Assembly (NCBI RefSeq): GCF_910592395.1
Contig: NC_088315.1
Coordinates: forward strand, 7,132,501 to 7,196,500
Length of the DNA stretch: 64,000 nucleotides
Direction of reading: 5' to 3'
Source: Lineus longissimus
Lineage: Eukaryota; Nemertea; Pilidiophora; Heteronemertea; Lineidae
In this document: piece by piece, positions 13,968-41,556 of the stretch
Numbering within the stretch: position 1 is the stretch's first letter
How the letters are laid out: each line of letters begins with the position of its first letter
Program-made: the position numbers and the translations under genes
Notes under the pieces: model-generated
Told to the model about the DNA's origin: nothing
Seen by the model: the letters and a program-made list of their open reading frames with translations, nothing else
Database searches by the model: none

Positions 13968-16004
13968 GACAGTCGAGTCTATCCTGTGTGACTGGCACAG
14001 TTACTGCTCAACGTTCCACACTCGCTACACTCCCTCTTCTGCCTTGTCTCCTTCTGGACTTCACAATCATATTACCATCACGAGGCATCAGCGCAACCTA
14101 CAATGACAATTGACAATGAGAAGAAGCCACAAGGCAAGCAGACCTATCTGCTTCATGGCCTGAGACATTGTCACAACCTTAATATATAGATTATAGTCTT
14201 GTCTAAGATGTTCAGAAATCTTGAAAATCGCTCTCTAATTAACGATTGCGTATTTTACATGGTATGACGTCATTTTCCAAAACATGGCTGACGTCTGTTT
14301 TTCGTGCCCAGATATTTGCACCTTGAAAGGTAGATTTAAATCCCCGATATAGGTCATGCAATGTTGTGGAATCAGCAAAACAGTTGAAAGACATACATTT
14401 CAACATACTACCGGTCATATACTGCTGATTACAGTAATCAAACAGACTGTATTTTACAGTTCAATTCCCTTACAAAATCCGTTTATCCAACTCAGCTCAG
14501 CTTGTACCAACATAAAAACCTGACTCATCATTCTGTGGATAATCATGTTTATTACTTATGTTTTGCAGGCTTCACAAATCTGCCAGAAACTTACACAAAG
14601 TATGTACAGCACCATCTTCATTGAGGACCAGAAAGCCGAGAGAATCGTGAATGCGATCAATTCCTTGGGTGATGGTGGACATTCTACCTGGTGGGCTGGT
14701 CACTGTTCACTAAAAGATTGGAGAAACAAGTCGTCATATGCAATTTGAATTGCAGCGGACGTTGCAGTTTAACATAAGTTGTGTACCGGAGCTACGGAAT
14801 ACGCTGTATAACACAAGGGCCTTAACATCACAGTAGAAAAGAATCATATTGAATTCACAGGGCTCAGCCAGGCCTCTGAATCTGATGATTGATGGGGCGC
14901 GGGCGAGGGGGTTGATCCAGCAGCGGCTGGCAGCGGACATTTGTCTTGACTCTTGCTTGGCGCTGCTACAGCTAAAGTGATGTGGTACAGCCTAGAAGCA
15001 GTGTCATCATTGGCGAAATCGACTAAAGTTTGTGAGGGGTTGAGTTTCGTCCAAAAATAGATCTGTTTACACACTAAGGCAATGGCGTATTGCAGGTACA
15101 CGTCAACGGATCATTCTCATTGTCGGACGTCAGTTCACCAAGAAAGCCAAAGGAATCGAAGGATTCATTGAACTCATCAACACATCATTAGTTTTCATTA
15201 AAGTTCAACTGTATTCCTAGAAAAATCACTTTGGTATATAGAGAGTAAGATTACAATTAACTCACGTTAAAGTTTGAGTTCCGGGGAGGTAGCGTTGCCA
15301 GTACGTTGGTTTAGGGGCGCAATAACCTAGCTTATAGCGAGCAATTAGTACACTATCCACTCTATTGGCACTTCAGTGTTGAGCACGTCGTCAAATTTAT
15401 GAACAAAAGCTTGAGCAATTTCAAGCCTTTTTAGCCTAAAAACACTGAGATTATGCTGTTGCCTGCTTTGAAAAAGTGTTCATTAGAAGCTTAAAAGATA
15501 TTTCAGACCAGGTAGCTACTGCAAAGATGTTAGAACGATCCAGAAGATGGCAGGCTTGGGCCAAAAAACCATAGAAGTGATCCGCAAAGGCCAAGGGATT
15601 TTTCGGAAGTAGACTGTAGGCTACTATAGATCCATGCACTTGATTGGGAACAACGTTTACGAAGACGTCGCATCTTGTTACGTTACAGTAATGTAAAAAT
15701 GCAGGGTGACGTGACGACGGCCAACACTACGTTATGTAAACGTTGTTCCCAATCCAGTGCATGGATCTTTAGAGAAGTTTCGCAAGCCAACGACATACGA
15801 CGTGTACGTTAATGTCAGAAACAATCATGACGTCGCATTCTGATCATCACAGCAAAGGGCTTGATGATTCGGACAGAACACTTCCAATAATTTACTCCGT
15901 TACATTGGCCTGTGCATCAAGCATTTGTTCTTTCCCGCTGGTTGACTTTTGAATGTGGTTGAGTACCCGTACGTATGGAAGATTTCTCTTTGTTTTTTTC
16001 AGCA
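13968..16004. promoter_or_regulatory. Head-to-head intergenic region between two zinc-finger genes
   Basis: About 2 kb separates the start codons of the minus-strand and plus-strand zinc-finger genes. It must hold both 5' regions, including at least one 5' untranslated exon for the plus gene, because its first coding exon opens at an acceptor 2 bp before the ATG. No TATA box or promoter element is claimed. A perfect-arm inverted repeat sits at 15628-15768. Confidence 0.45.
15628..15768. mobile_element. Short terminal-inverted-repeat element (MITE-like or foldback)
   Basis: The left arm at 15628-15660 (AGATCCATGCACTTGATTGG then GAACAACGTTTAC) is matched by its reverse complement at 15736-15768, with one or two mismatches over 33 bases. 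The 75-bp interior is rich in ACGTC/GACGT words. No open frame is present. A target-site duplication is not clear. Confidence 0.75.
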
Positions 16005-19000
16005 ATGGCAACCCAGTATGATGTCCATACTTGTGGTTCATGTAAGGTGGAGTTTCTCAGCATAGAGTCCTTTATTCACCACAAGCAGAAGTCATGTCTA
16101 TTCCTACAGCCAGACAGCTCCGAACATCGAGGCCAGGAGGTTCTTCTCGTCCTGAAGCCACAAGGGAAAACTAACAAAGGCTCGGACTTGGTTAATCAAG
16201 CAATGCACGTTCATAAGTCCAGTCAAGTCAAAATTAAATCAAGTTCTCTGTCACCAGTACGTGTTGTCGGCCAGAATTCACCACCAATACCTCTAATCCA
16301 GTGTGTCACACAGCTTTCACCAGTTGTCCAATCCACTCATCAGAAATCGCCAATTGGGGGCAGACAGCCAATGCGCTTTGGCCCTCTGTTTTCACCAGCT
16401 GTTCCACGATGCCACATTGTCTCCCAAAATTCATCAGTTGTGCAGTCAGTCCCAAACTCGTCAGCTGTTCCACAGATATCGCCTGTTAGGCAGCCAATTC
16501 GTTACATCCAGCAGAAATCGCTAATTGGGCAGAGAACTCACCGAGCAACTCTATTCCAAGTTGGTAATGCAACTAAGAAAGCTGTTTTCCCATCACAAAC
16601 ATTGTCCAGAATAAGATCAAGTCAGGAAATCAATCAGGCTCTTGAGTTCTTAAAGACAAGTGCCAGTTCTTCTCCTGGAGTCCATGAAGCCAGGCAACCA
16701 TATAGCCAGGCCCACATTTTGGATGCTCAGAACACTGCTACTGTATCAGATGTTGTTGTTGAACCTGCTCAGGGCAGTCAGTCATGTCAGTCGATCAGGG
16801 AAAAGTTGAGTTGTGACAGTCTATATATTACTGACGATCTGCCTGCAGGCACTTCTGAGGATGAGTTTGCCACCAAGGATCTTGGTGCTACTTCTCATCC
16901 TGAGCAAGATGGGCCTTTGAATCAAGCTTTGGAATTCTTAAAACCAACTGAGGAAAGTATTGTGCTTCAAGAGTTCTATGATGAGCAGGTGAAGAAGGAA
17001 GTAAGCCAGATGTCGCAAAGTATTGCGGGAGGGTATGTCTCAGATATCCCAACTAGATTGTGCTGCATCCAGTCAAGCAAGGATTCCTCTTGTACACAAG
17101 GGGAAGGTGAAGTTGGTCAGTTGATCAATCAAGCGCTATTTTTCTTGAAGCCAGCCAAAGGAAATGATGGAGAATCTGTAGAGGCTAAAACACAACCGAA
17201 GAAAAAGAGGAAATTGATAAGACCAGTTCATGCGAAGGATCCAGAGCTTGGGCACGTTGACACAGAAGCCCAAGAGACAACCGGGTTGGATCTCTCGGAA
17301 CCAGCTGGTACTGCTACTGCAGTGAACACTGGGGCCTTGATGCCGGGGAATCAAGATACATTGATCAGCAATTCAAAAACTATTGGGGATACCGTGCAAA
17401 ATACTTGGGGTGAGAATCAGTCACAACCGTGTCGTCAAAATATTCCAGATTCCGTAATAAGTAGGCCAGATAGTAACCTTGAAATCTTTGAACACGAAAA
17501 TTTTGTAAACCAAGGAGCCTTTTTCTTGAACCCTGATGGAACTAAGAAGCCTTCAGAAGAACAGATCAGGAAAACTGTGGAAGATGTTCAGACACTATTA
17601 GTGCTCTATCCTTCTAGGGCGTTGACTGCCCAGCCTTCAAGTCCGGTTCAGTCAGTACCCAGTTCAGCTGTATTGGTTTCTGATTCAGTTCAAGTTGGTG
17701 AAACTGGCGGTGTGTTTGGTGCTGATACAAGTGAACTGGTTCCAGGACAGGTTGGCGATGTTCTGACTGATCAGGATAGAGAAACCGATATACCAATAAA
17801 TCAAGCCCATTTCTTCCTGAAGTCGGCCCATGAAACTTGGCAGCCCACTGAAAGAGATATTTCCCTCAAGGATCTGTCTATTTTGGTGAAGAATGCCGTG
17901 AAATCAACCCAAAAAGATCCAGGACAGCATGGTAGGTCATTTTTCGTTTGTCATGTTAATCCTCTTCAACAGATAGATTTACTATTTTGTTTCTTTTTCA
18001 GTCTAACCAATCAATCCGAAAAAGGAATAAAAGGATTACAATGTGGCACTATTTCCACCTGATTAAGTCAGTTTTATGTTTCGTTTTCAGACAACGTTTT
18101 CAAAAAGACAAGAAAGAAAGTACATGAAAAGCGTGAGTGTCAGGAATGTGGCAGCATTCTTCGATCCGAGCTGAGCTTCATCGCCCATCAAGTTGGACAT
18201 GATGATAAACGCTGCCAGTACTGTTACAAGGTATTCCATACAAAAGGTTGGAAGGAAAGGCATGAGCATGACAAACACAATATAGGACAGTCTAAATGTG
18301 AAATATGTGGCAAGGTGTGTAAGACTCATTCCGGTTGGAAAACACATATGAAGTCACATGAGCAGAAACTTCGGCAAAAGTTTCATTGTGGACAATGTGA
18401 TAGGAAATATGACTCGGAGTTCCTACTCGAGCATCATAGACGTAGACATGAAGGTAAAGACGATTGTGCACTGTGTGGGAAAATTTGTAAAACTGAAAGA
18501 ATCTGGAAGGTTCACATGATGCATCATAACCCGACTGTGTCGTGTGAAGACTGCGATAAGAAGTTTGTCACAAGGGTTCAGTTGAGCCGTCATCGACGTC
18601 ATGCGCATCGACCGATGCGTCTGCCAAAGGTTAAGAAATCTTCGAATAGACCGAACCAGAAGTGTGAAATCTGTGATCGTGTATTTTTTTGGCCTGAATC
18701 ATTTAGGAGGCATAAGAAAATTCATGAAGTAGGACCAAGTAAAGTACGTAAGCCTAAATGGACAAAAGTGAAAATGACAGAGAACATTTCTGCCTCTGTA
18801 TCTTGCGGTGATGAACAACCAAATGACCTCCAAGACTGTGAGACCATGTTGACCGCTGCCAGCGCTGGTACCTCTAAAGACACTACTGAGCATCACAGTG
18901 ATGAGGAATCTGGGCAGCTCAGTGAAGAGGATTCGGATGACACTCTGGCCATGATTAGAGAAGCTGTGTTACTGTTAGAGCGACGAGACCCTGATGAGAG

Positions 19001-20618
19001 CGATGCGAGAGAGACCGCGGAGCCAGAAGAGGTGCAGTTTGTAGCAGAGGTGATGCCAACTGGTGCAGTAAACTTGAAGGTGAGCTGGATTCCATTGTCA
19101 TGCTATGCGTCTCAAACTTGGCATCAGTATACTTCTTGTAAGAAATTCCTATCCTCGAAGGCTTAACATAGAGTCTAGAATGACTTTCTGCCTGCCACAT
19201 TTAGTGACATACATGCACTTATTACAAATGGCTCCATCTGGAGCATAGGTTATCAAGAGTCTCACTCCACTTCTCACAACCACGTGCTGCTCCTTCATTT
19301 TGCCTCCATGAGATTTTTAGTGAGCTTGTAAAACTGAGATTCCTTGTTTGTGCTGCAAGTGCCATTGCGAGTGAGTTCTCCTTGGCTGTAGACTGACTGA
19401 CTGCCAATAACTTCAGTTGGTGCCCAAAGGTGCAGGTGCACCACCAACACTCACAAAAGTTCAATATGAAGAAGAACTGAACGGATAGCAAATTAATGTC
19501 AGTAAAATTCTATAACAAATTTTGGTATCTTTTGTATCACATTTCAGGTTACTAAAAGGAAACGAGAGGAGATACAGTTGACTGGTGATGTTGCCGAGGG
19601 AAAACAAGTGGAAAAGAAGTCGACGGATAAAGTTGCTAAAAAGAGGAAAGTGGAGAACACTGATGATGTTGCAAATGACTCCGATACGAGTGGGTTGACA
19701 GAAGGTGTGAACAATCTCCGATGTGTGTTATGTAAACAAGAATTTGCGAATGAGTTGTCATTCATTACCCATGATTGCATGACAATCAAGCCACTTACGT
19801 GTAAACACTGTGAAAAGAAATTTAACGACTTAGTGAAATTCCGGTTGCATCTTAAGCGTCATCGCCTGATCAGATATGATTGTGACAAGTGCGATTTGAA
19901 CTTTCGTTCTTTGGATATTTGGCAGCGCCATATGAAGGAACACGAAGAGGAGGGGGGGAAAAGACATAAGTGTGAGAGTTGTGTCATGGAGTTTTTCCAC
20001 GAGGAAAATCTCCTGCTGCATGCGAGGAAGCATGCATTTCGAAATGTTCATGAATGTGGCATGTGTCCAAGGGTATACATGGCAAAACACGCTTTGAAGA
20101 AGCATGAGGAATCACATGTCAAACCGGAGTATTTTCAGTGTAAAATCTGCCTGAAAAACTTTGTATTCAAGGCGAAGTTTGTACAGCATGCCAAGAACTG
20201 TCGCCAATGCCGAGCTTGTCATGAGATTTTTGAGAAAAGAGGATCATATTTGAAACATGTGCGTGAATTTCATCCAGTTTTTCATGTTTGTGAATACTGT
20301 GGTAAAAAATCCAAGGGAAAGAAAACTCATCTAAAGCATCTAGGTCGTCACGCAAACCCCCTGATGTGTAAAGTTTGTCATAGAGTCTTTAAATTTAAGT
20401 GTCAACTGGTGGACCATGAAGTGATACACTTCAGCGACCGGCCATTTAAATGTACGTTCTGTGAAAAAACTTTCAAAGTGGAAAGGGCGAGGATCAGCCA
20501 TGAGCATATCTGCCATCCCACTGAAAACCCCTGGAAATGTAAGCAGTGTGGAGAAACATTTCTTCAGAGGTTCGACTTCAGAATGCATGTCCAAAGTTGC
20601 AGCGAACTAGCAAGCTAA
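16005..20618 (+). CDS. C2H2 zinc-finger protein with 19 fingers and a repeated NQAxxFLKP motif
   Basis: Three coding exons: 16005-17931, 18091-19079 and 19548-20618. They total 3987 bp, 1328 aa, and all phases close. The first exon begins at an acceptor (TTTTTTTCAG, exon from 16003), so the ATG at 16005 lies two bases in. An in-frame ATG at 15975 would be used only if that intron stays. An N-terminal CCHC-type finger (HTCGSC) is followed by about 600 disordered residues carrying five copies of [LIV]NQAxxFLKP (starting at aa 209, 305, 374, 501, 598) and an SV40-type nuclear signal, PKKKRKL (aa 398-404). Exon 2 holds seven fingers, then an acidic Ser-rich stretch. Exon 3 opens with Lys-rich sequence and holds eleven fingers, three of them CCHC. 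The role is inferred as a nuclear nucleic-acid-binding regulator; the family is not recognised. Reading into the first intron would stop at 18062 and lose all but the first finger. Confidence 0.92.
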
Positions 20619-26500: not shown

Positions 26501-28230
26501 CGAAGGAGGTCCACAGCATTATGCTCCCAGATCGAACTGATATTTGGCAAACCCACAGAGGCAACAGTTTGACCAGCAGGTCCGTCAGTTTCCATGTCAT
26601 CACCACCAGCCGCCAATTTCTTATTCTGATTCTCCTCTTCGTTCGAATTGGATCTTTTCACCGGGTTTTGATAAGGTGCGCCAATTTCCATAGATACCCC
26701 CGACATCAGGGTACCTGAATTAACAGGTTCTCTTGGAGTTTGATCATAAGGTCCGTGATGAGGGCAACCATCGTTGCATGGAAATGACAGTAAATTTTTA
26801 AAATTTGCCTCTGGACTTGACACATAAATATTCACTGTTGTTGCTGTCACAGAGATATCGGTAGGTGATGTTCCAGTTGAGGGCGAGGGTAGACAATTAC
26901 CTTTCCTCCCAATTTCATCATGATCCTTTCCGGTTAGAAGATGATGCATCGGATCATCAACCTCAGTCGGTGCCTTTGGCGGAATCTTCAAAGTGTACTC
27001 CTTACTGTTCTTGTAGTAGTCCAGGATTGCTAAAGACATGAACAAAAAGAAGCAGTCAGTGATATGTTCATTGAGTTTTTAGACTAAGGGCTGGATGTAG
27101 ACATGACTATTGATGGACTGTATATGTGTCCACAGCACCTCACCTTTCTGTGTGTCTGGCTTGTCTAATACATCTGTTTTAATGTCATGTCTATGGTGAG
27201 AGCCGACAGCACTGTAAAATGTTCTCCACGTTGTCTGACCATCTTCTTTGAGGTAGTCTAGGATGTCCTTTGAAGAACTCTGAGTTCGACGACCCGCAGT
27301 CTGAAAAATTTGCAAAAATATAGGTTCAGTACCTCACCACTCTTGCGAAAGTAATTTTGAAGTTTTGACAAAACAAGTACATGTGGAACCTCTCTGTTAG
27401 GGACACCCTTGGGACTGAAGAGTGCTGTTCTTATTAAGGAGGTGTCCTGATTAGAGAGGTTAAATTGAATGAAAACAACCAATTTGGGACCAAACCTAGT
27501 GTCCTTAATAGAGAGGTTGTCCCTAATAGCTGTGCAGGTATTCCAACTACAGAAAGGGAAATATTTCAGACAAGACCCAGTGCAGTTAGTCATAGTGATG
27601 ACTAACAATAGTCATAGTGATGACTAACAATAGTCATAGTGATGACTAACAATAGTCATAGTGATGACTAACAATAGTCATAGTGATGACTAACAATATG
27701 ACTAAGAAATGCAGAATAACTGGGTCAGGCTATCGCCTATCGGTTGGTTTTGCATATGTTGGACATGTTGGACATGTTGGACATTATATCATGCACTTTA
27801 TTTAAATATACACAGGTCAAGACTTTCTGAATCAAGTGGTTGGTAGTTTATTCAGAGGAGGATATTGTATTGTAGACCTACATCTATGGTTTGTCTAGGG
27901 ACACCAAGGGTTTCTGCAAGCAACTTCTCTCCGTTTCGTCTCACCAACAATATTGCCTCCAAATCGCGATACACTGATGGAGGACAAAACCTGTAAGAGA
28001 GAAAAAATGCACAGAAATGTATTTTATTCTCCACGGCCACCCCTGCCACTCTCCACATTTGTAATAGGGGACCGTACCAGTACAAGTACAATTGTAATGA
28101 ATATCTAGAGTCTATTTGATAAAAAAGCCATCTGACAACACAGAGTTATTAGTTCCTTTTTTGGTTCACCCCGTACATCTCTTACTTACCGGAAGGAAAT
28201 GTCCTTCCAATCCATCTGTTGGTTCGACAT
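23583..28230 (-). CDS. TRAF3IP2: Death + SEFIR adaptor, CIKS/Act1 (TRAF3IP2)-like
   Basis: Six exons: 28230-28190, 27990-27882, 27300-27144, 27029-26010, 25710-25547, 23981-23583. They total 1890 bp, 629 aa, and every phase closes. Residues of about 17-98 fit a Death fold: an L-x3-L-x3-R helix, then KLLAETLGVPRQTI, then SSSKDILDYL, then a helix ending in HRHDIK. The layout aligns with the MyD88 Death domain. Residues 103-442 are disordered; PTEVDD (aa 123-128) fits the TRAF6-binding pattern PxExx-acidic. The C-terminal part (aa 443-590) matches SEFIR: first strand RLLFLFNA, a helix, an IGQEIMQDVV helix, a WIAICLDKPYV strand, and the block NIRYTYALLKAEY ... LLPEWLLNAS, matching the KYIHRMMQIEF ... 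VPTWLQNT block of human Act1. By family knowledge SEFIR adaptors bind IL-17 receptors at the membrane and recruit TRAFs. The Death part is less certain. The gene symbol is by homology only. Confidence 0.8.
27380..27532. mobile_element. Degenerate MITE copy (same family as 56184, 57825 and 60657)
   Basis: In intron 2 of the Death-SEFIR gene. It contains GGAACCTCTCTGTTAGGGAC, TATTAAGGAGGTGTCCTGAT, AACAACCAATTTGGGACCAA and CCTTAATAGAGAGGTTG, in the opposite internal orientation to the better copies. The outer ends are eroded. Confidence 0.65.
27590..27705. repeat. 22-bp tandem repeat, about five copies
   Basis: The unit GTCATAGTGATGACTAACAA plus TA repeats about five times almost perfectly, followed at 27757-27783 by three copies of TTGGACATG. 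It lies in intron 2 of the Death-SEFIR gene. Confidence 0.9.
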
Positions 28231-28865
28231 TATGTCAAGTATCTCAAGCAGATTTCATCTGACTACCGGTTTGGAAGTAACATCATGTTGTCACTGAATA
28301 TTCTAAAACTATAAAAGTTAAAGAAAACAGTGTTAATTTTGACCAGACTGGAGCAACTGCAGAATAGCCGAGACACTCTGTGCTAAATGATAGGAATCGT
28401 GTACATAATGTACAAAGGACACTCGAGAGCTACTACTGTCCGGCTATTCTGTAGTTAGGCCGAACAATGTTAATGAATGCTATTATTCATATACACTACA
28501 CACTCACTCAGTGCATGAGTACGAGTGGACAAATGTCGGAATGAGAAACTGATGTGTCCTCATTATTGCGATATTAAGCATCAAATCGAATATATTTCTG
28601 ACATTCAATGCTAGCAACGACATCACAAAAACCTATTATAAAAATAATTGACAAAAACAGGAAGACAATTTGGGCGAAAAGAGTCGAAATTAGGGTAAAC
28701 TTTACCTTGTCTGGGGTAAAACAATCCGCTTCTATTTCTGGGGAATCCCCTCATTCATCGGGTCCGTTCAGTGGCGCCGTCTATTAACGGAAAGATGAAG
28801 GTCAAGGGATAATTTTAGTTCTCTTGTCCTTCACCAGGAACGACACCGTGCAAGGGTGACAACAA
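28231..28865. promoter_or_regulatory. Shared 5' region between the Death-SEFIR and glycogen synthase genes
   Basis: Only 635 bp separate the two divergent start codons, so the promoters must overlap or adjoin. No TATA box is claimed. Both first coding exons are short and start in this stretch. Confidence 0.5.
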
Positions 28866-31800
28866 ATGATGGCTGGAGGAGGGTCCAAAGATTTTAGAAG
28901 AAGAGGGTCCTTTGCTCGGACCCTCAAAAGCATAGAGCCCGAGTTTGACGACTGTCTTGATTATGGTGTTCATGCCACGCACCTCAACAAATGGGTTTTC
29001 GAAGTTGCTTGGGAAGTAGCCAATAAAGGTGCTGACAGTGACAAACTTCACCCAATTTTCTTATTTTGCTAGATTTTCTGCATTTACTAGGCCTATAGGC
29101 CTAGTATTTTGGCCTAGGCAGGGCTAGGCTGCTATAGCCTACTAAATGATCATGGTGATGTGTTAGACTTGAGCACTTACTCAGCTTCTTGCATTTGCCC
29201 CATAGCAAGCCTATCGCTCTGTGTAGGTTTGATAATAGCGTACTTCAAAATACCAAGGAATGACGTCAATACGTCACAACCACAGAACATTTACTAGAGA
29301 CAATGGCACAACTAGGCTACATGAACTAGCCAAACAATTTGCCGTGTTAAAATGGTTATAATTCAGTTTTAACATGGAAAATAGAAGTGTCAAGTGACAT
29401 GGTATCTCCTTTCCCTTTGATTTTTGGCGTATCCTTCTTTGAAGGTCGTTGTTCTGGTTGTGACTTTGTCCCTACATTGTTTGGTTGCATGGTTTTTGAG
29501 TCACATGATGTAACAATGAGTACAATGTCAATGATGTTTAGCTTGTTAGGCCCCAATGTAACACATATCCAATCATGAGAGAGAGAGAGTAAGGTTTGTT
29601 ATGATTTTTTTTTCAAATGTGAAGTAAATGTTGTCAGAGTTTGAGCAGTTCAGCCAGGTTCTGGATTACACTGAACACCTAGGCCTAACAGTAACAATAA
29701 TCTAATTTTTTCTGCTTTCAGTCGGTGGTATCTACACAGTAATCCGGTCCAAGGCTGGAGTAAGTGTTGAAGAACTAGGAGAAAGATATATCCTCCTTGG
29801 ACCATACAATGAGTCGTGTGTCCGGACAGAGGTTGAGATTGTTGAGCCGTCTGTGCCTGCTTTGAGGGACACCATAAACCAGATGAGGGATCATGGAATA
29901 AAAGTAAGGGTTTGACCAAATAAAATGTGTGCCACGGGAAAGATGTTTGCCACCATTTTTCCAAATTGATATTTTCGAACTTGAATGAAATGCAGTTTCA
30001 GAACTTATAGACTTCAGTTTTCACTTGACAGGCAAGTTGGTGGTAGGAATGACCTTTCTGTGGAGTACACCCACAAAGCTGATGCCTGCTGTCCTCAATT
30101 CTGATACACAGACTGTCCTGATTTGAATTGTCTATGTGTATTGACCAGTTTGGGACAAAGTGATAGTATCCTCGGTGAGGATGGCCTTCTTAATACTGAG
30201 GTGTCTTGGAAGTACTGGCACTTGTGTCAAACTTTTCCTGTTTGTAAGTGAGGAGGAGAATTCAAGATGCCAGTGGACTACCACATCACTTCACTTTACT
30301 CCGAATGTTAAGATTTTCCTGTCAAATTAAAAGATTTTCTCCCACAATGAGGTCAGGTTTGCTTCCCCTCTACCCCCTTGGTAAATCTATGACCTTCATT
30401 TGCCGTCTTTGTATAGGGTTACCATCCTAAAAAATGCAGACATCTGACCTTGAAATATGTCATTATTTTTTCAGGTTACGTTTGGACGATGGCTCATTGA
30501 AGGTTATCCTGAAGTTGTTCTCTTTGACATTGGCTCGGCTGCATGGAAACTTGACGAATGGAAGAGGGAATTATGGGATGCGTGCCATGTCGGACTCCCC
30601 TGGCACGATCGAGAAGCTAATGATGCCATTATATTCGGAGCTTTGGTGGCATGGTTTTTAGAAGAGGTTTGCGTCTTGATTATGCATCCATCTCCTGAAT
30701 AGTATCTTTACCCCTTAAGAAGATTAGATTCAAATCTCTTTAAATAGACATATTAGTCAATTGGACAGGAAAATTGCACTGTGCCATGGAAAAAACTAAA
30801 AATGGCTTGGAAATTAAATGTAATGATATGTTGTATGGAGCAGATTGTAATGATGATGTGGTGTAAATGGTGTGAATGGTCAAAATATGTTTATACCCAT
30901 TTTTGTATGTGATGTCAGAGTCAATAATTAGACAAAATTATTGGTGTTTTCTTGGTGTTTTCCAGTTCCGGAAGAACAGTATAGGAGAACCTCTCATCAT
31001 CGGTCACTTCCATGAATGGTTGGCCGGAGTAGGTTTGATCCTGTGCAGGATGAGACATCTAGATATATCGACAGTTTTTACGACGCACGCAACACTCTTA
31101 GGACGATATCTCTGTGCTGGGAGTGTGGATTTCTACAATAATTTAGCTAATGTAAGTTCTGAACTTCTGGTTTTCACTTCCTTCCTGTGTTCATGTGTGT
31201 ATAACAATGCTCAGATCAAGAACAAAAGAAAATCTCCAAAAATGCCTAAATCAACATCTGTACAGATGAAATAATTGGCATTAATTAATTGTATAATCCT
31301 AATCTGCCAATTTGTATTTTCAGTTCAATGTAGACAAGGAAGCTGGCGACCGTGGTATCTATCATCGCTACTGCATGGAACGCGCAGCTGTGCACTGTGC
31401 CCACGTCTTCACCACCGTGTCACAGATAACGGGTTTGGAAGCGGAGCACTTATTGAAGAGAAAACCTGGTAAGAATTCGCTGTACTGAATTTGACCATGT
31501 TTTGTTTGGTATTCATGCCCTAATTTCATTTGAAAACTCGTTAGCTGGTGTACCGACTGCCGTAATAAAGACAGCTTAATGCTAATAAAAGTTTTGTTAG
31601 AGAAATAGAACTTTAAAAATCATAATATGTACATGTACATGTACTCAGATAAAAGTATTACTCTAACTAAGTACCGACATGAAAACCTGGGCGTATCAGC
31701 TTTTCTCTCAACCGTTCTTACTTTCTACTATTGTTACAGTGCTAGTGCTACATGTACCCTGCTAAATGTAATGAGTTGCCTTTCTTCGCTTATTTGTACA

Positions 31801-34800
31801 CGTATTTGAAATTGTTATTAATGGATGAATCGAACCGAGTCCATATTAGATTCGATCATATAGTAGAATTTTAGTGTCTGTACATACATGTAGACACTGC
31901 CAAGCATCAATGCGGGTAGGCATTAGATTCCAAAATTATCCATTATTACTATTGTTACAGTGCTAGTGCTACCCTGCTAAATGTAATGAGTTGCCTTTTT
32001 TCGCTTAAGTGTACACGTATTTGAAATTGTTACTAATGGATGAATCGAACCGAGTCCATATTAGATTCGATCATATAGTAGAATTTTACTGACCTGTACA
32101 TACATGTAGACACTGCCAAGCATCAATGCAGAGTAGGCATTAGATTCCAAAATAATCTGTTCCACCGCTGAGCACTATCTAGCTTTGAACTTGGACAAGT
32201 TCTCTCAACGCATAGTTTGCTAAAAGTTGCTTTGTACATGTAATTCTTTTGAGCAGTGTGTACCGTACAAGTGAAAAATTGTGTGTCTTCTCCCCAGTAT
32301 CGGTTTCTGTTAAAAGCATGCAAAGCTATGGACCCTTTATGCGTTTGTCCTTTGTCATATAACTGACTTTTAGTTCATTTAACTATCCTGATCATAACAT
32401 TCAAATGCAGTGGCTGCCTCGTGGTTGAAGTCACGTAAATGATGAAGCACTTGTTACCATCATTCACCTGCACATGACAAAGTGCGATAATCAGAAATCT
32501 GTTAAAAGCATGCAAAAATATGGACCGTTTCATTTGTCATTTGTCTTATAACTGACTTTTAGTTCATTTAACTATCCTGATCATAACATTCAAATGCAGT
32601 GGCTGCCTCCAGGTTGAAGTCACGTAAATGATGAAGCACTTGTAACCATCATTCACCTGCACCAACGGCAATGATGGAACAGAAATTGAAGTAAAATGTT
32701 ATTGACACAGTAAGAGGTTCTAAAAAATTCACCAAGTGAGATTTATTGGCTGCCTCCCTGGTTCAAGTCAGTGCCCTGTTGCCTGAAACCTATTACAGAT
32801 CAGACTGAAAGTCCTCACTTTTGTCTTTTATCATGATATATTTTTTTGCCTCCGCTAGATATCATAACGCCCAATGGTCTGAACGTCATCAAATTTAGCG
32901 CCCTGCATGAGTTCCAGAATCTACACGCTAAGTCCAAGGAAAAGATCCATGACTTTGTTCGTGGTCATTTCCACGGGTAGGTTGAAGTTAGGAATGCTTT
33001 CTTTCTAAGCAGACTAACAAGCACAGAGCAGTTTTTATTGTTCCGGTGTGGCTTACAGGATTAGGTTTCTGAGGGGCTGATGAAGTGTCAATTCATCCCT
33101 TTCTAACCAGTTTCCATCCCTCCCTCAGTCCATCATGTGCCTTACTGTCAACCGATAAATTTTTGCCAGTATCTTATTTTCAAGTAAAACGTCTTCTCGA
33201 TTATTTTTTTTGATTTAAAAAGAGAAAACTGTAAGAATAAAAACCCTGAAATCGAAATTTCTTTTAGAAATTTTCATGAATCACAAAAATGAAGAGGAGC
33301 AAAGAATTTACGGTTTGCAGTGCTTTTTCCTTGCGCCTTTCACATGTCTTTCTTTCTGACAGTTACCACTGCTTTTTCCCGCTTCACTTATTGCTAATGT
33401 TTGTCCCTTTTCTTTTCTTCCCTCTATTGCATAATTTGTTTCTTCAGCATGGGTCAGAGTGCACTTCCTCTTTGGTTTGCCAAAGAAGTCCAGGCTGGTT
33501 CCCCAATGACTGAGTTCCCTTCATTTGAAATCTCCTTCTGGGGTTCCATGCTTTGGTATCTTTTCAGTTTGCATGCTTCTGCTTGTAGTTTTCTGATAAC
33601 TTTCTATTTCCTAACATAAAATTTGTATTGACTTGGTGACTGATGGTGATTGCTTGAATTGGCGCTTGGACTGGTAACTGCCAAAAAACTAACTAAAAAA
33701 ACTTGTGCTGTCTCAAACCGTGTATACAATAGAATAAGATGCTTTGGACTGAGTATTTATCAAGAGCAGGTCAGTAACAACAATAAACTCAAAAGGGGTG
33801 ACTCTGTTGGCTCGACAGTTCCAGTCCTACATGCTACTGAATACTCACCATCCGTCTCATATCTAAACAAACAACTGGGTGACAGTCGAGTGGTAAACTG
33901 TGTCCCTTTCTCTGCTTCTCGCGCCCTAAGATGTGATCACTCCAAATGGGCTGAATGTCACCAAGTATGCAGCCGTTCACGAATTTCAAAACATGCACGC
34001 CAAGTCTAAGGAAAAGATTAACGATTTCATTCGTGGTCACTTCTATAGGTAGGTGCTGTTGTTGTTGTTGTTGTCGTCAAAGACGTAATTGGGCTTTTTT
34101 TAACCCCTGACCCTTTCTAATCTGAGAAGTTTGATTGGCTCGTTTGAACAACAACATTTCAACATGTGCGTGCATGTAAACTATTTCAAAATAGTGCCAA
34201 TTTTACAAATCAATTTATCTTAGCGTATATAGAATAAGTCTGAGACAATGGATATTTTTAAGGTCAATCTCCCTTTCAGTCATTATGATTTCGACCTTGA
34301 CAAGACGTTGTATTTCTTCATTGCCGGACGTTATGAGTTTTCTAATAAAGGTGCTGATGTCTTCATTGAGGCCTTGGCAAGGCTTAACCATTACTTAAAG
34401 GTAGGAGAGCGCTAATTGTTCTGATTACTAGGTAGGTTGTAAACTCATTGGCAGTCCACCACTGCGATTGAATCTCGGATACCTTGAAGTGGTCGGGAAA
34501 AGGTGTGCGCTGAAATTGTGGCTGCTACTGACACCTCAGAGTGCCTCTGTGGAGACCGGTTCTTCTTCACTCTGCATTCACTCAGCACTTGGAGATGTTA
34601 TTCTCCAGGGAGTATTCCTCCTCCAGGCAGGATGAGTGTAAGGCACCAGTGCGGTTTATTAGCCCGGTGACTCAGTCTTCGGCCAGAGGTAGAGTCCCCT
34701 CCCTCCTCTTGAGTTTGTGGGTCACTGATTATTTACTGCCTAAGCATTTATTTACTTTGTAATTCAAAACTAAGTTTGTAACTCCTTTTCATTCTTTGTT

Positions 34801-37800
34801 TCAGTCCTCTGGTAGTGAAATGACCGTAGTGGCATTCTTGATCTTCCCCGCCCGAACAAACAACTTCAATGTGGAATCATTGAGAGGTCAGGCCATTGCT
34901 AAACAGCTGAAGGATACAGTTGCTCAGGTCCAGGGAACTTTAGGAAGGAGAATATTCGAAATATGTCTCAGGTTTGTTGACTCTTGCTGGCAGTTTTGTC
35001 AAATATCAAACTGGGTGCTGAGTACATGTGTGCTGATACATATGCTAGTACATTGATGTAGCTTGTTAAGCTCGTAGCTAAACATTAGTAGGCCTCAGCT
35101 GATTACAACCCTAGATGGCTAGTGCCCAAGTACAGTGATGTAGCTTCTTGAACCCGTAGTCTGAGGTTTGTAGGCTCTGTCTGAATGCATGCTAGTTGAC
35201 TGGTACGCAATGTGTACAATCCACTTGCCTTATTGTATCTCTGAGGTATATGAAAAAACACGTTTTCTCCTGTAGGGGTCATATCCCATCTGGTGCGGAA
35301 ATTCTAGTCCAAGATGATATCGTCAAGCTGAAGAGGTGTATCTTTGCGGCACAGGTAAGGACAGGGCGAAACCACTTCTAGACTTTTGCAGTATTTATCG
35401 AATGGTTCTTGGTTAAGTAGACTTCGAACTTTGAACAAAAACTATTGGTCTCAACCTTGATACATTGATCCATCTTCTATGATTCTGCTATACTAAAATA
35501 ATTATCTATTTCCTAGTGGCAACAATGCAGTCTTGATGTCGAAAGATATCACAGAAGTTCAATTCATATTTGTACCCGTTTGGCATCTTTATGGAATTGA
35601 TGACTGTTTTTCTGTTTGATTTTTTTTCTCTGTATAATGTCTCCTGTGTTCAATGACTGACACAAAAGAGTTAACGTGGTACCCAGTCGACTGATAATTC
35701 TAGAGTGGGGAAAAGATAACAGTAGATCCGCTCGAGAAATCTATTTGGCTCTCTATTACTCTTAGTCGATTGAGCACTGAGGTTAAGTTGAATTAACATA
35801 TCCTGGGTCTATGTGCATGTTCGATCCTTCTGTTTAACAGCATTTGCTGGCATGCAGCATTTCTATTCGAAATAATGTGGACATGTGATTCAAAACTATA
35901 CCAGAAATTGGCGTGTTGTGTTCGCTTTTAAAAAAAACTTTTGTGTACATAATACAATGACTTATGACAGCCTGTTGCGTCTGTTTTTGGCTTAAATTTT
36001 TTTCTGCCCTTAGGTACTGTTAGATCTCAGATGTTATCCTTGCCAACCTGATGATGAAGTGCGAAACAATTCTATTTCAGCTGTCTGTCACTAACAAACC
36101 TTCTGATTAATGATTGTTTTGCAGAGACATAGCATGCCCCCTGTATGCACTCACAATGTCTGCGATGACGGCAAGGATCCCGTTTTGAATGCTATACGAC
36201 GGTGCCAGTTGTTTAACAATAGCATCGACCGTGTGAAGGTACAGTAATGCAGCCGAGTGCTACACGTACTAACGATAAAGAGTGATTGATTGTTCCCTTA
36301 ACTCCATTTCACGAAAGAAGCCACTGCATGCAAAGAAAGCCTCAATGGCTGGGAGAAGTTGTCAGTACTTTGTTTCCAATGGTTCTTGGTCCGTTGAAAT
36401 ACAACATTATGTTCAAATGTGTCATTTTCTGAGCAAAATCACCAGAAATCAGAAGGCCATTCTTTCGTGAAGTGGAGTATAGTCTCACGTTTGGTGTGTT
36501 CTGTGCAGGTTTTGATCTATGTTTACCATTCCCTGTTAAGATCGAGTTACAAATTCTATCTTCAGGTCAGATTTGGTGGAAGGAGTGAAGACTGGTCCCA
36601 ATTGTACACAAACGTAGGATTTGGACATCCACTTCTTCACAAATTCCTTCAAGGTTAAGGAAAAAATTCACACCCGTCTAAAACTTCCTATGTTGCAGGA
36701 CATTTTCTCTTGGTTTATGTTCCTTTGACATTGTTTGAAGGAAAAAGTTTGAAGTTCTCGATTCACAAGTTTTGGTAAACATTTGGTAAGCAGGGATGGT
36801 GAACATTGACTTGAGCCTGCACAGCCAAACCAGCTAACCCAGTGTGTGGTGTTCTGTTTCAGTTCCTAGGCTATTTATACATGTAGATTCACTCTTTAAC
36901 TTCAGCGGAGTTCGCTGCCTCCGGTTTGTACCCACAACGTCATTAATGACGAACATGACCCGGTGCTAAAAAGCATCCGGAGGGTCCAAATGTTCAACAC
37001 CCAAACTGATCGGGTCAAGGTTAGTAGGTCTGGATCCTGAAGTATCGCTAACTTTTGCTTGCATGAAATGCTTACCAGTTATTGATGTCCCTGCTTTGAA
37101 ATGAGATGCTGCACCAAAAAATTGGAGACTAGCAGCCACGGGTCAGCAATATCAGTTTTTAGCTGCTTTAGGTCACATCTTGAATGATTCTGAAATATTT
37201 ACACTCTGGAGGCACTCGCGCTATTTTAGTCAAACTTACTGTTCTGGATACTCAGTGCGGTATACATGTAGTGAATGGAAAACAGGTCAGTCAGAGAGAG
37301 CACCGAAGCAAATAGATTCAGTGCTTCATATCCCTTGGTTTGCTCCGGTTTCTATCCCCATTTGACTGCTGCTGTTTTGGCCAGGGATATCCGGTTCTCT
37401 TGTCAAGTACTCGTATCAGTCCACTTCCTGCCAGACGAGTCCTCACTGATGTCGTGGTGAGAAACAGGTAGGGTTCTAGGTGTATTAGTAAAGATAGATA
37501 GCAGTGTTAGAATGTTTTTGACTTCCTTTAAGCGGACTTGACTTCCTGATGTCGGGAAATGTTTGAACACAAGTTTTGCCACAATGAAGTTGTAACATTA
37601 GTAAAGTCTTCTCTGATAAGTGTTAGTTTCACTTTGTAGCGAATCTCATATTGCCTTCTGCTTTTACAGATCATCTTCCATCCTGAGTTTCTCAACTCCA
37701 CTAACCCACTTTTCGGACTGGATTATGAAGATTTCGTACGAGGATGTCATCTAGGAGTGTTTCCCTCTTACTATGAGCCTTGGGGTTACACACCAGGTGA

Positions 37801-40121
37801 GTAACAACTCACGCAAGCTGATCAGTCAGCGCTACAACCTAACAATTCCCGACCGGTACCCATTGATACACTCGGGTGGAGTAAGGCACGAGTTCAAATC
37901 CAGGTCCAAGATGGATAATCGTATTTTGTACATTCCATTTTCAGCTGAATGTACCGTTATGGGTATCCCGAGCATTTCAACCAATCTGTCCGGATTTGGT
38001 TGCTTCATGGCCGAGCACATTGCCGACCCGATGTCGTATGGTATCTACATCGTAGACAGACGATACAAGTCTCCGGAAGAGTCAGTTCAGCAGCTTGCAC
38101 AGGTCAGTGAAGAACTAGCATACTTGGGGCCCATACATCATTAAACAATGTACATTTAATGTAATTGAGCGCCCTGTGTACATCTATGTTGGTGATTTTG
38201 GCCTAAATAAAATTTACGATTCCATGTTCTCTTGATTTCAGTACATGTTTGACTTTACGTGCTTATCAAGGCGACAACGAATCATCCAGAGGAATCGGAC
38301 AGAGCGGCTCAGTGAGTTGCTCGACTGGAAAAATCTAGGAATTGTAAGTTTAGAGCATTACTGTTCCAAGGCAAATAGTTGCTCTGGGATTTGCTGCTAC
38401 ATTGTATAAACTTGCATTGTAAAGAACATGGTGAAAATGTTTTCTCACACATCAGTTAGTAATAGGCTTTAGCTACCTGTTTGAATCGTATAATTCATAA
38501 ATGATATTGCCACCATTGTATTAGTTAACCCTTTGACCAACATGGTCGTAAATTTAGGTTTTGAAAGTCATCTGTTGACCACCAGGTACGGTATAAGGTC
38601 TAGGAACCGCCATTTTTGTCTTTGGCGGTCAAAGAATTCATTCTTAATTTCAATCATTGCAGTACTACAGAAAGGCTCGTCAGCAAGCTCTCGTCAAGGT
38701 GCATCCGGAACTGTTTTCTGATGACTCACCAGCGGTAAGTCAGGATTAATTATCATTCAGATTCTTTTTTACATCCCTTTGCTCTACTTTATATGTGCTT
38801 CATATCAGGCTTAATTTTGTTTGTAGGGGCAAGGATGGCTGTTTTATATATTGCAGCCATCACCTTCATCTGGCAGCCATTACCGAAATTCTACTGCAAG
38901 AGTCTTTTAGTAATCACAGGCATGTGAAGATACCAGAATTGTTACGATCAACTAGACCCAATCAACCGATTTTCACAGCCTACAAAACACTTCTCAATCT
39001 TTTATAGGGTCTGATTGATCAGTTGTATTTTAGTATCTTCATGCCCCTGTGAGCACAGGGTGTAATGGAAAACTGTTTTGGCAGAGAGAATAATCCTTTG
39101 ATTTGCTTGGAGAATAGAGCTTTTTTAGTTTGTTCCCTGCTTATCCAAATGTTGTGGCATGTATGTGAATGTAGAAAGTTGTTTATGCAGGAGGAGGAAG
39201 ATAAACCTATTAACGTAAATGTGTCTGAAAAACCTAAGGTCAGTAGAATTTTAAATGTGGAGGACTGAGAGCTTGGGATCAGTGGTAATGTGTATGTTAT
39301 GTCATGCAGCCTCAGTCCTCAGTCCTTGGTCTTCTATCCTAAGGTGTCTTCTGTCGACCTTTGACAGTTGTCCAGGCTGTGGTAGTCTTCCTTATGTTGC
39401 TTTCGCAAAACCTATCTCCAGGGAATTCAGTGCGTGTTCGATATCAATTGGTGGCAGTTTCATCCTCCTTTAATCTCATTTTCATTTTCTTCATCATCTA
39501 ATTTCTGTGTGACTATGTCTGTTGTGTGTGATGCCATGCTTCTCAGCTCTTGCCTATACTCACCCTCTATAGCCCTTTACCCATATCAGGGTTTTCAGTA
39601 TACTGACCAAGCATACATGTATCGTATAACCCATGTAATCTGAAATAACATCATCTTTCATCGGGGATATAGTGCTGTCAGGAAATGCCTCAAAAGGAAT
39701 CGAAAACAGTTTGGCCTTTCACAGCTGAGGCCTTCATTTGACCACTTTCAACATTGTAGAATGACCACTGTCGATAAAAGAATTCCCTCATAACAACTCG
39801 TATTAAAATCAATTGTTTATTGTGCTTCATGTACATGAAGCTTAGCAGTTTCGTTTTTCACTAGAAAATTGGAAGATGAAGATAAGTCTTAGCACTGTTT
39901 TACTCTACAACTCGATTCTTTTCTAGGGCATGATGTTCCGCTACCCTAAGCCAGCATCAGAGCCGCCTTCTCCGTCAATCTCCCGCGCATCTACGCCAGC
40001 ACCTTCTGAGCACGGGGATGACGAGGATGAGGAGATCGACTCGGAGCAGGAGGAGGAGGAACTGAGAGAGCTGGAGATCAAGAGTCAGGATAGCGTAACA
40101 AGTGGCGCGAGCAGTCACTGA
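28866..40121 (+). CDS. GYS: Glycogen synthase (GT3 family)
   Basis: Adds glucose from UDP-glucose to glycogen by alpha-1,4 bonds in the cytosol. Exons: 28866-29028, 29722-29903, 30475-30666, 30966-31151, 31324-31468, one of 32859-32976 or 33931-34048, 34280-34400, 34805-34971, 35276-35354, one of 36125-36238 or 36906-37019, 37670-37796, 37945-38102, 38242-38343, 38663-38734, optional 39191-39238, 39927-40121. Without the optional exon this gives 706 aa (human forms are 703 and 737). Conserved parts: EVANKVGGIYTV near the N-terminus, [24 protein letters not shown], the catalytic [16 protein letters not shown] with both glutamates, and the Arg cluster [16 protein letters not shown] that binds glucose-6-phosphate. 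RRRGSF near the N-terminus fits a PKA-type site. The C-terminal [11 protein letters not shown] segment keeps the GSK3 ladder of S/T every four residues, ending before an acidic CK2-type run. The start is the first of two ATGs. Confidence 0.96.
31730..32157. repeat. Tandem duplication in glycogen synthase intron 5, period about 221 bp
   Basis: The segment from ATTGTTACAGTGCTAGTGCT at 31730 is repeated from 31951. Copy 1 carries a small CATGTA insertion. Both copies include GGATGAATCGAACCGAGTCC and GACACTGCCAAGCATCAATG. Confidence 0.9.
32309..32661. repeat. Second tandem duplication in glycogen synthase intron 5, period about 192 bp
   Basis: The segment from GTTAAAAGCATGCAAA at 32309 recurs at 32501. 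Both copies include ACTGACTTTTAGTTCATTTA and GTTGAAGTCACGTAAATGAT. The two copies end just upstream of exon 6a. Confidence 0.9.
32859..32976 (+). other. GYS: Glycogen synthase alternative exon 6a
   Basis: 118 bp, entering in phase 1 and leaving in phase 2. Acceptor TTGCCTCCGCTAG, donor GTAGGT. It encodes (D)[17 protein letters not shown] and onward to RGHFH, residues 290-328 of the protein. It is followed 954 bp later by an equally long homologous exon. Confidence 0.9.
33931..34048 (+). other. GYS: Glycogen synthase alternative exon 6b
   Basis: 118 bp, with the same phases as exon 6a. Acceptor CTCGCGCCCTAAG after a long pyrimidine tract, donor GTAGGT. It encodes (D)[17 protein letters not shown] and onward to RGHFY. 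About three quarters of its residues equal those of exon 6a, and most differences are conservative. Joining both would break the frame (phase 2 exit into phase 1 entry), so they can only be used one at a time. Confidence 0.9.
36125..36238 (+). other. GYS: Glycogen synthase alternative exon 10a
   Basis: 114 bp, phase 0 at both ends. Acceptor GTTTTGCAG, donor GTACAG. It encodes 38 residues, from [15 protein letters not shown] to SIDRVK. It is homologous to the exon at 36906. Confidence 0.88.
36906..37019 (+). other. GYS: Glycogen synthase alternative exon 10b
   Basis: 114 bp, phase 0 at both ends. Acceptor TTTAACTTCAG, donor GTTAGT. It encodes 38 residues, from [15 protein letters not shown] to TQTDRVK. 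About 25 of 38 residues match exon 10a. Including both would keep the frame but duplicate the segment, so mutual exclusion is inferred from homology to a single exon in other glycogen synthases. Confidence 0.88.
37812..37915 (+). repeat. Short SINE-like fragment in glycogen synthase intron 11
   Basis: The stretch with CGACCGGTACCCATTGATAC, ACTCGGGTGGAGTAAGGCAC and GAGTTCAAATCC has a B-box-like end. It resembles short interspersed elements seen in marine invertebrate DNA. I base this on the general look, not on a matched family. Confidence 0.35.
39191..39238 (+). other. GYS: Glycogen synthase optional 48-bp cassette exon
   Basis: A run of 16 codons ([16 protein letters not shown]) is bounded by TTTATGCAG and GTCAGT, phase 0 on both sides. 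It sits between the exons at 38663 and 39927, in a part of the protein that varies in length between species. The splice sites are moderate and no homologue is known to me. Confidence 0.55.
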
Positions 40122-41460
40122 TAGTGGCGAGTCACAGGACTGTTCGGAATTATTCACAGGGTGTTATAATCGCAGTGAGCAGTCATTTGAATTGCTCGTT
40201 TATGGAAAGCAATCATCTTGTGCTTTTGAAAAGATTTTCAAACATTTTCAAAAGTGTGGAGTAGCTGTTTATTTCCAGCACCCTCAGCGCAGGAATGCTG
40301 TACAATGACTGGGGGCCAGCTTTCAAATAACTGGAGCTTCATCTTCTCCTGTGAAACATGCTCTTAATTCAACATCTGCATAGTTGAGTAGTAAGTTAAT
40401 CTAGTAGATATATTTAACCTACAAATTTATTACACTTGTTGAAACTTGATGAAAAGTACAGGAATGTCATTTATTTACGCTAACTCTTTTCCCCTATAAT
40501 TGTTAACATTTAGCTAAATTATTGATTAATCAAGACAACGATATAATGTATGCCACACATCTGCTCATGGTCTTGTTGATGTCCCTGCTCTGTCTATTGG
40601 TGTGGTGTGGTGGTGGTCCGATTCAGGGAGATATCACAAATTCTCTATGTACATTGTATGTAAAATGTGGCACATTTTGGGTATTCGGCTACGTGCTGGT
40701 ATACCCCAATCAAGCTATCTCCGTCAAAGACACTACTCAAGCTGTGCTGTGGTAACTCCTGGCTTAGGCGAATCAAGGCATTTTGGTGAAGTGTTGTAGA
40801 CCAGTTAATAGTCGACAACTTGCATAACAGGATCTTTGTCTGACTGTTGACTGCATGGTATATTAAGGATAAGTTTGTTCATGATATGTACTGCATGTCG
40901 TGGGCTGAGTGCAAAACTGTTGTATCTACACTTCCTTAGGTTTTGAGGAAAATGACTTCAAAGATTTGAACTTCATCAGCAGTCATCAGCCTCGTTTGTT
41001 TTGAGGAAGCCATTTTGAATGCAGATACAATGTTTTTGCACTCGTGTTTTCCTGTAATCTGCAGATACAATAGTATTACATTAGTAGTTTAGGGGCGTAT
41101 GATAGAAGGCAGCACTAATCAACACAATAATATTGTGGATATGATGTTTTTGCATAAATTTCTGGGGCTAACTCATTTTTTTCAAATTTGTCAGTTACAA
41201 CAGTTTTGCGCTCAGCCCACGATGTGTAAGACAATATTACTAATGAAGTTGTTCATAGAGTGTAGATATATTTGTGCGGCAGCTACTTCCATTGTGCTAC
41301 TTGTGTTATTGAGTACCGATGTGCTGTTCACATTAACTTACCGTGCTTGATGGGTGCACACACCATCAAACGATGTGTATTTTGTGTAATTGAGAGGCGA
41401 TTTCACAGATAAGGAATGTGCAGTAGATTAATAATTAATAAATGAATATGAGCTGAGAAT
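40122..41460 (+). other. GYS: Glycogen synthase 3' UTR
   Basis: About 1.3 kb without a coding exon follows the TGA at 40119-40121. AATAAA at 41437-41442 is the best poly(A) signal. It lies about 30 bp from the oppositely oriented signal of the MAM gene. Confidence 0.6.
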
Positions 41461-41471
41461 ATAAAATAAGC

Positions 41472-41477
41472 TTTATT
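41472..41477 (-). terminator. Poly(A) signal of the MAM/ShKT gene
   Basis: TTTATT on the plus strand (AATAAA on the minus strand) lies 80 bp below the stop codon at 41557. It is opposed by the plus-strand AATAAA of glycogen synthase at 41437-41442. Confidence 0.6.
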
Positions 41478-41556
41478 TTGTTCTTTTTATACATATACCC
41501 TGTTATGCCTTATGTTCTTTTCTTGTTTTTTGAAAAACAATTCGGTTCTGTAAAAG

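What the first reader, a model, noticed from the sequence alone, without database searches (positions are those of the whole stretch)
32859..34048. Mutually exclusive exon pair 6a/6b in glycogen synthase
Two 118-bp exons with identical phases (in 1, out 2), their own pyrimidine-rich acceptors and GTAGGT donors encode alternative versions of residues 290-328. About three quarters of residues match, and most changes are conservative (I/V, F/Y, L/M, V/I). Including both would shift the frame. Both copies look under purifying selection: neither has a stop, and both keep the ITPNGLNV and HEFQN blocks. Vertebrate glycogen synthases have one such exon. I know of no report of alternative exons here, which suggests switchable forms of a core metabolic enzyme.
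Basis: partly seen in the sequence, partly recalled or inferred. Interest (0 to 1): 0.9.

Follow-up and report, generated by a model that had tools for sequence, protein, structure and literature searches.

The report
Swappable exons in worm glycogen synthase
A glycogen-making enzyme gene of a ribbon worm carries spare versions of two of its exons, one of them covering the part that senses glucose-6-phosphate, so alternative splicing could make several differently tuned forms of a basic metabolic enzyme from one gene; this has not yet been seen in RNA.

Summary
Exons 6a (32859-32976) and 6b (33931-34048) of a 15-exon glycogen synthase gene are 118-bp tandem duplicates with matching phase and their own splice sites. 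No other of the 15 exons has a second copy in the window. All four 6x10 combinations give one clean 706-aa frame. Both pairs are old (synonymous sites saturated) and constrained: pN/pS 0.14 and 0.24. The species is Lineus longissimus (Nemertea) or very close: its public protein 'isoform X3' equals my 6b+10b+14b translation. Exon 6 encodes the glucose-6-phosphate-sensing loop and helix. The pair swaps Leu for Val at the residue that in human GYS1 (Met290) wedges the regulatory helices apart, and 6b replaces a glycine found in 226 of 226 other proteins compared. My reading: mutually exclusive exons that tune allosteric control. Splicing could not be tested; only the b-b form was seen, so exclusive use, tissue pattern and effect are inferred. 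It is a new member of a known kind.

The parts
28866..40121 (+). glycogen synthase gene (start codon to stop), 15 exon positions plus 14b
   Evidence: spliced model, 706 aa, one stop at the end; human GYS1 is the best PDB match by sequence, 1031 bits
32859..32976 (+). exon 6a, residues 290-329; Leu305, Gly329; usually closer to other species' exon 6
33931..34048 (+). exon 6b, residues 290-329; Val305, Ser329; used in Lineus longissimus isoform X3
36125..36238 (+). exon 10a, residues 452-489, 114 bp, phase 0-0; usually closer to other species' exon 10
36906..37019 (+). exon 10b, residues 452-489, 114 bp, phase 0-0; used in isoform X3
39191..39238 (+). exon 14b, 48 bp, [16 protein letters not shown], next to the C-terminal tail; presumably optional (inferred)
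   Evidence: present in P0001, found in the window with AG and GT borders
31324..31468 (+). exon 5, upstream neighbour of 6a/6b
34280..34400 (+). exon 7, downstream neighbour of 6a/6b
35276..35354 (+). exon 9, upstream neighbour of 10a/10b; ends the long helix 437-450 of the model
37670..37796 (+). exon 11, downstream neighbour of 10a/10b
38242..38343 (+). exon 13, encodes the arginine-rich regulatory helix (RRQRIIQRN) that exon 6 acts on
34171..34176 (+). TGCATG (Rbfox-type motif, label recalled) 123 nt after 6b; a post hoc lead only
36325..36330 (+). TGCATG 87 nt after 10a; a post hoc lead only
37060..37065 (+). TGCATG 41 nt after 10b; a post hoc lead only

Best explanation
One glycogen synthase gene of a ribbon worm (Lineus longissimus or very near) has two pairs of tandemly duplicated exons, 6a/6b and 10a/10b, of which one of each is spliced into a given mRNA, plus a probably optional 48-bp exon. 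Exon 6 encodes the loop and helix that bind the activator glucose-6-phosphate. The copies keep the contact residues but swap residues around them: the wedge residue that pushes the regulatory helices apart (Leu or Val) and an otherwise invariant glycine (Gly or Ser). The exon choice therefore most likely sets how strongly the activator, or relief from phosphorylation, switches the enzyme on. Exon 10 swaps the linker between the tetramerisation helix and the catalytic domain. Shown: the exons, their frames, conservation, and a public protein model using 6b and 10b. Inferred: exclusive choice, use of 6a and 10a, and the effect on allostery.
For: Exon anatomy and clean frames in all four combinations. 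No second copy in the window of the other 13 of 15 exons. pN/pS 0.135 (bootstrap 0.05-0.27) for exon 6 and 0.24 (0.13-0.39) for exon 10, with synonymous sites saturated in both. P0001, Lineus longissimus isoform X3, equals the 6b+10b translation except for exon 14b, which is also in the window; its 90%-identity cluster holds 4 sequences on 1 contig. Exon 6 corresponds to human 275-314. In human GYS1, His291, Glu292, Gln294 and Lys301 contact the activator, 290-292 become ordered on binding, and Met290 drives the regulatory helices apart, with Leu as its C. elegans and Phe as its yeast equivalent (PMC9287172, passages and section 8). A second human structure also reports a loop ordered only on activator binding (PMC9188544, passages). 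The contacts are identical in 6a and 6b; the wedge is Leu in 6a and Val in 6b. The AlphaFold model starts helix 305-326 at that residue.
Against: No RNA reads were available; only a b-b form was seen, so 6a and 10a could be rarely used. Joint inclusion of 10a and 10b stays in frame, so the frame does not enforce exclusivity there. No RNA pairing beyond controls. Many swapped positions vary among species: the wedge is L 95, V 57, I 49, M 24, T 1 of 226, and the ribbon worm Tubulanus has Val in the one form seen, so the functional effect may be small. No relative's genomic DNA was examined, and the gene's copy number was not checked because the genome search did not complete.
Confidence: 0.6

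Rival explanations
1. The exon pairs are genuine and mutually exclusive, but the two versions are functionally near-equivalent; the value of the duplication is regulatory (tissue- or stage-specific expression or mRNA turnover), not a changed enzyme.
For: Many differing positions vary between species anyway; all glucose-6-phosphate contacts of exon 6 are kept.
Against: 6b has Ser at a position that is Gly in 226 of 226 other proteins and Tyr302 where 221 of 226 have Phe; the two versions have been kept different while synonymous sites saturated.
Confidence: 0.25
2. One copy of each pair is a fading or very rarely used exon, and the gene effectively makes one enzyme.
For: The only public sequence of this gene seen uses 6b and 10b.
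Against: All four copies are open, have GT/AG splice sites and differ little at nonsynonymous sites; the unseen a copies are the ones usually closer to other species (exon 6: a closer in 190, b in 16, tie in 20 of 226; exon 10: 151, 21, 48 of 220).
Confidence: 0.1
3. Assembly artefact: two haplotypes or a collapsed paralogous gene make one exon look doubled.
For: Tandem duplications do occur in intron 5.
Against: 71% and 57% nucleotide identity with saturated synonymous sites is far too diverged for haplotypes; only exons 6 and 10 have second copies; the public model, from a 21-Mb contig, skips 6a and 10a and uses 6b and 10b.
Confidence: 0.02

Closest known systems
PKM (pyruvate kinase M; exons 9/10, numbering recalled) and PFKP
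   Same: Metabolic enzymes in which tandem duplicated exons swap part of an allosteric site; PMC9741552 (section 10 read) says PKM and PFKP isoforms differ at a residue binding fructose-1,6-bisphosphate.
   Different: Different enzyme families and effector. Here the activator contacts in exon 6 are all kept and the change is at the wedge next to them; and two separate exon pairs lie in one gene.
KHK (ketohexokinase) exon swap
   Same: One-for-one exon swap beside a ligand site, with the ligand residue conserved in both (PMC9741552 section 10).
   Different: KHK's swap lies next to the ATP site; here it is an allosteric activator site in a tetramer.
Vertebrate GYS1/GYS2 (muscle and liver glycogen synthase)
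   Same: Two enzyme forms that differ at the same wedge position: Met in human GYS1, Val in all 6 mammalian entries named 'liver''s list.
   Different: There two genes; here, by inference, two exons of one gene, with Leu and Val.
Lineus longissimus 'glycogen [starch] synthase-like isoform X3' (NCBI)
   Same: Identical to the 6b+10b+14b product of this window.
   Different: Nothing; it appears to be this gene. The other sequences of its cluster were not visible here.

Membership tests
Eukaryotic glycogen synthase (GT3, PF05693) | Sequence homology over the enzyme and the precomputed PF05693 domain | tested here: met
   Human GYS1 matched over residues 41-680 with 1031 bits; P0001, identical to the 6b_10b product plus 14b, carries PF05693
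Eukaryotic glycogen synthase (GT3, PF05693) | Glucose-6-phosphate site: His291, Glu292, Gln294, Lys301, His501, Arg579/582/586 of human GYS1 | tested here: met
   All present by alignment; the exon 6 residues are conserved in both 6a and 6b
Mutually exclusive tandem duplicated exons | Adjacent homologous exons of equal length and phase with own splice sites | tested here: met
   6a/6b 118 bp, 10a/10b 114 bp
Mutually exclusive tandem duplicated exons | Both copies maintained as coding sequence | tested here: met
   pN/pS 0.135 and 0.24, upper bootstrap bounds 0.27 and 0.39; a pairwise measure, so it does not rate each copy alone
Mutually exclusive tandem duplicated exons | Each copy is spliced into mRNA | tested here: inconclusive
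   6b and 10b are in a public protein model; no evidence for or against 6a and 10a
Mutually exclusive tandem duplicated exons | Never both in one mRNA | not testable with these tools
   Frame forbids it for exon 6 only; RNA data needed
RNA-structure-directed exclusive exons (docking/selector pairing) | Intronic elements pairing beyond chance | tested here: inconclusive
   Only splice-site regions against introns were tried, in one species: 9 pairings of alternative splice sites (8 acceptor, 1 donor), best p 0.065 and 0.095 against shuffles; 8 control pairings, best p 0.045 and 0.075. No support.
Steric or U2/U12 incompatibility of exclusive exons | Very short intervening intron or mixed splice-site classes | tested here: not met
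   Introns between the copies of 954 and 667 bp; all donors gt, none GTATCC

The most novel reading that the evidence does not exclude
One glycogen synthase gene makes a combinatorial set of enzymes (four from the two exon pairs, eight if exon 14b is optional) whose glucose-6-phosphate response, tetramer linkage and tail are set by splicing. This would let a ribbon worm do with exons what vertebrates do with the GYS1 and GYS2 genes.
Probability: 0.35. Interest if true: 0.72.

Novelty: new member of a known kind. Interest (0 to 1): 0.52.

Why it matters
Glycogen synthase is controlled by phosphorylation and glucose-6-phosphate; splicing of its allosteric segment would add a third, hard-wired layer. 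The pair is a natural swap of the wedge region in an otherwise identical enzyme, so it offers a direct test of the recent structural model in which that residue drives activation. It would also add glycogen storage to the core metabolic steps (pyruvate kinase, phosphofructokinase, ketohexokinase) with tandem exon swaps.

Tried and rejected
Competing RNA structures: the repeat finder gave inverted repeats touching the 10a and 10b acceptors. Duplex energies against 200 dinucleotide shuffles gave nothing beyond the controls (17 pairings, 9 alternative and 8 control), so I dropped the idea. A Rfam scan of 28000-41500 gave 0 matches at gathering score.

Rbfox-type motif: TGCATG lies within 200 nt downstream of 3 of the 4 duplicated exons (6b, 10a, 10b; not 6a), of 0 of 12 constitutive exons, and not within 200 nt of exon 14b; 3 or more were seen in 0.7% of shuffles. 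The motif was picked after looking at the sequence and does not tell 10a from 10b, so it is only a lead.

Age of the duplication: trees of the 38-40 residue segments with 25 animal proteins (my choice from the 120) leave exon 6 unresolved (a+b sister, AU p 0.36; a+Tubulanus, 0.27). For exon 10, a+b sister has AU p 0.025 but KH and SH p 0.23 and 0.24; a+Tubulanus is acceptable (AU 0.50). The best exon 10 tree puts 10b with a chiton (support 93), which is not believable as history. It hints at a duplication older than the Lineus-Tubulanus split, but the segment is too short to rely on.

Same exons elsewhere: region searches found no other protein with a 6b-type or 10b-type segment (150 proteins, 120 listed; best non-Lineus matches 81% over the whole region and 86% over 98% of it; none of the 226 other proteins held has 6b's Ser329; 2 proteins, the other 71%; only 2 candidates passed the word filter, so it is a weak search). 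Only 90%-cluster representatives are searched, so alternative isoforms inside clusters are missed; this is not evidence of absence. The DNA collections here are prokaryotic, viral, plasmid or metagenomic and were not scanned.

Literature (search listings unless stated): glycogen synthase with 'mutually exclusive' (1176 papers, 30 listed, mostly GSK3), 'mutually exclusive exons' (43, 30 listed, no title on glycogen synthase exons; PMC6611504 opened as passages, where the two terms are unconnected), 'exon duplication' (11, 10 listed, none on it), splicing plus exon 6 plus invertebrate (3, unrelated), nemertean plus alternative splicing plus mutually exclusive (0). A search for a GYS2 variant in exon 10 gave 0. 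PMC5740500 and PMC9741552, on human exons, hold no mention of GYS1 or GYS2 in the main text (supplements not looked at). The library lacks most subscription journals.

Full report
The gene. The stretch 28866-40121 on the + strand is a complete glycogen synthase gene. I placed 15 exon positions by their AG/GT borders and by homology; the spliced product is 706 residues with one stop at the end. Its best sequence match in the PDB is human muscle glycogen synthase, GYS1, over residues 41-680. The best match among 5.8 billion proteins is P0001, 'glycogen [starch] synthase-like isoform X3 [Lineus longissimus]', a heteronemertean ribbon worm. Removing 16 residues from P0001 gives exactly my 6b+10b product, and those 16 residues are encoded at 39191-39238 with AG and GT borders, exon 14b. 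The window is therefore from Lineus longissimus or something almost identical, and the public model of the gene uses 6b, 10b and 14b. The 90% cluster that P0001 stands for has 4 sequences on 1 contig; the other three were not visible, so whether they carry 6a or 10a is unknown. Whether the genome has other glycogen synthase genes was not checked, because the genome search did not complete.

The finding's pair. 6a and 6b are confirmed as described: 118 bp, phase 1 in and 2 out, own acceptors, GTAGGT donors. They encode residues 290-329 with the junction codons. In 40 residues, 10 differ: I291V, I300T, F302Y, S303A, L305V, L311M, H320N, V323I, H328Y, G329S. Joining both gives a stop inside 6b; joining neither gives a stop near the end of exon 7.

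A second pair. Exon 10 is duplicated too: 36125-36238 and 36906-37019, both 114 bp in phase 0, 25 of 38 residues shared. Here inclusion of both would keep the frame and insert 38 residues, so exclusivity is not forced by frame. tblastn of the 15 exon peptides against the window found second copies of exons 6 and 10 only; all other extra hits had E of 0.03 or more. With two pairs and exon 14b, if that is optional, the gene could make up to eight forms.

Both pairs are old and constrained. Nucleotide identity is 84 of 118 and 65 of 114. Synonymous differences are saturated (pS 0.93 and 1.06), while nonsynonymous ones are few (pN 0.12 and 0.25); pN/pS is 0.135 (bootstrap 0.05-0.27) and 0.24 (0.13-0.39). 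Haplotypes or recent copies would not look like this. The a copies are usually closer to other species: for exon 6, a is closer in 190, b in 16, tie in 20 of 226 proteins; for exon 10, 151, 21 and 48 of 220 with enough letters. These 226 are the listed hits of two searches without P0001: animals and fungi, with near-identical strains repeated.

What exon 6 does. Aligned to human GYS1, exon 6 is residues 275-314. The cryo-EM paper PMC9287172 (passages and section 8 read) reports that glucose-6-phosphate is held by Gln294 and Lys301 of this stretch, and by His291 and Glu292 of the neighbouring subunit, with Arg579, Arg582, Arg586 and His501 from elsewhere; that residues 290-292 become ordered on binding; and that Met290 then sits against Ile583 and Ile584 and drives the two regulatory helices apart, with Phe as the yeast and Leu as the C. 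elegans equivalent. (It also lists His287; by the alignment human 287 is Phe and the nearby conserved His is 297, so this may be a numbering slip.) In this gene the contact residues are the same in 6a and 6b, exon 13 keeps RRQRIIQRN, and the wedge is Leu in 6a and Val in 6b. An AlphaFold model of P0001 from a 45-sequence alignment (mean pLDDT 79.5; 76-90 in the blocks of the helix) starts the helix at that residue, 305-326. Across 226 proteins the wedge is L 95, V 57, I 49, M 24, T 1. The six mammalian entries named 'liver''s list have Val and human muscle GYS1 has Met. So the swap is of a kind seen between enzymes, here placed inside one gene; equally, Val is common, and the one Tubulanus form seen has it, so Val by itself is unremarkable. 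6b also has Ser at residue 329, Gly in 226 of 226, and Tyr at 302, Phe in 221 of 226.

What exon 10 does. It corresponds to human 437-474: in the model, the loop after the long helix 437-450, a short helix (470-477) and the run into the next strand, with low confidence in the loop (block pLDDT 57 and 67). None of the ligand contacts given in the passages I read falls in it. Lys429 and Arg430, which make an inter-subunit contact lost on activation, end just before it. A role in subunit coupling is a guess.

How the choice is made. The introns between the copies are 954 and 667 bp, and no donor is of the U12 type, so neither steric exclusion nor splice-site class explains it. Pairing of splice-site regions with introns was no better than in controls. 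TGCATG downstream of 3 of 4 duplicated exons and 0 of 12 constitutive ones is a post hoc lead to an Rbfox-type regulator (the link to Rbfox is recalled, not searched). For exon 6, wrong combinations would be out of frame and probably removed by nonsense-mediated decay (general knowledge).

Known or new. Tandem duplicated, mutually exclusive exons are a known kind, including in metabolic enzymes; PMC9741552 notes that PKM and PFKP isoforms differ at a residue of their fructose-1,6-bisphosphate site (section 10). I found no report for glycogen synthase in the held library, within the limits given under Tried and rejected. Region searches found no 6b-like or 10b-like segment elsewhere, but only cluster representatives were searchable and the exon 10 search was weak.

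Verdict. That both exons of each pair are used, and exclusively, is likely (my estimate about 0.85 for exon 6, 0.75 for exon 10) but not shown. That the exon 6 choice tunes activation by glucose-6-phosphate is the best mechanism on hand, about 0.5 on its own.

Noticed in passing
36125-36238 and 36906-37019 (+): Second duplicated exon pair (10a/10b) in the same gene, not mentioned in the finding.
   Followed up: yes
39191-39238 (+): 48-bp exon 14b beside the C-terminal tail, present in public isoform X3.
   Followed up: partly
31724-32157 and 32306-32662: Intron 5 holds two separate tandem duplications with units of about 215 and 190 bp, 88% and 96% identical over their longest parts.
   Followed up: no
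6643-7699: Minisatellite with nested periods of 59, 74, 133 and 207 bp, up to 97% matching.
   Followed up: no
60683-60805, 56192-56242, 57833-57883: The same 18-bp unit (YCTCTATTAAGGACAACC) occurs as short arrays at three places.
   Followed up: no
9580-12036 (-): 818-codon uninterrupted reading frame of C2H2 zinc fingers; further zinc-finger frames at 18315-19166 and 19578-20618 on +.
   Followed up: no
15975-18062 (+): 695-codon open frame without any Pfam match at E 0.001.
   Followed up: no
36301-36319 and 36460-36478: 19-bp inverted repeat, 95% complementary, in the intron between 10a and 10b.
   Followed up: no
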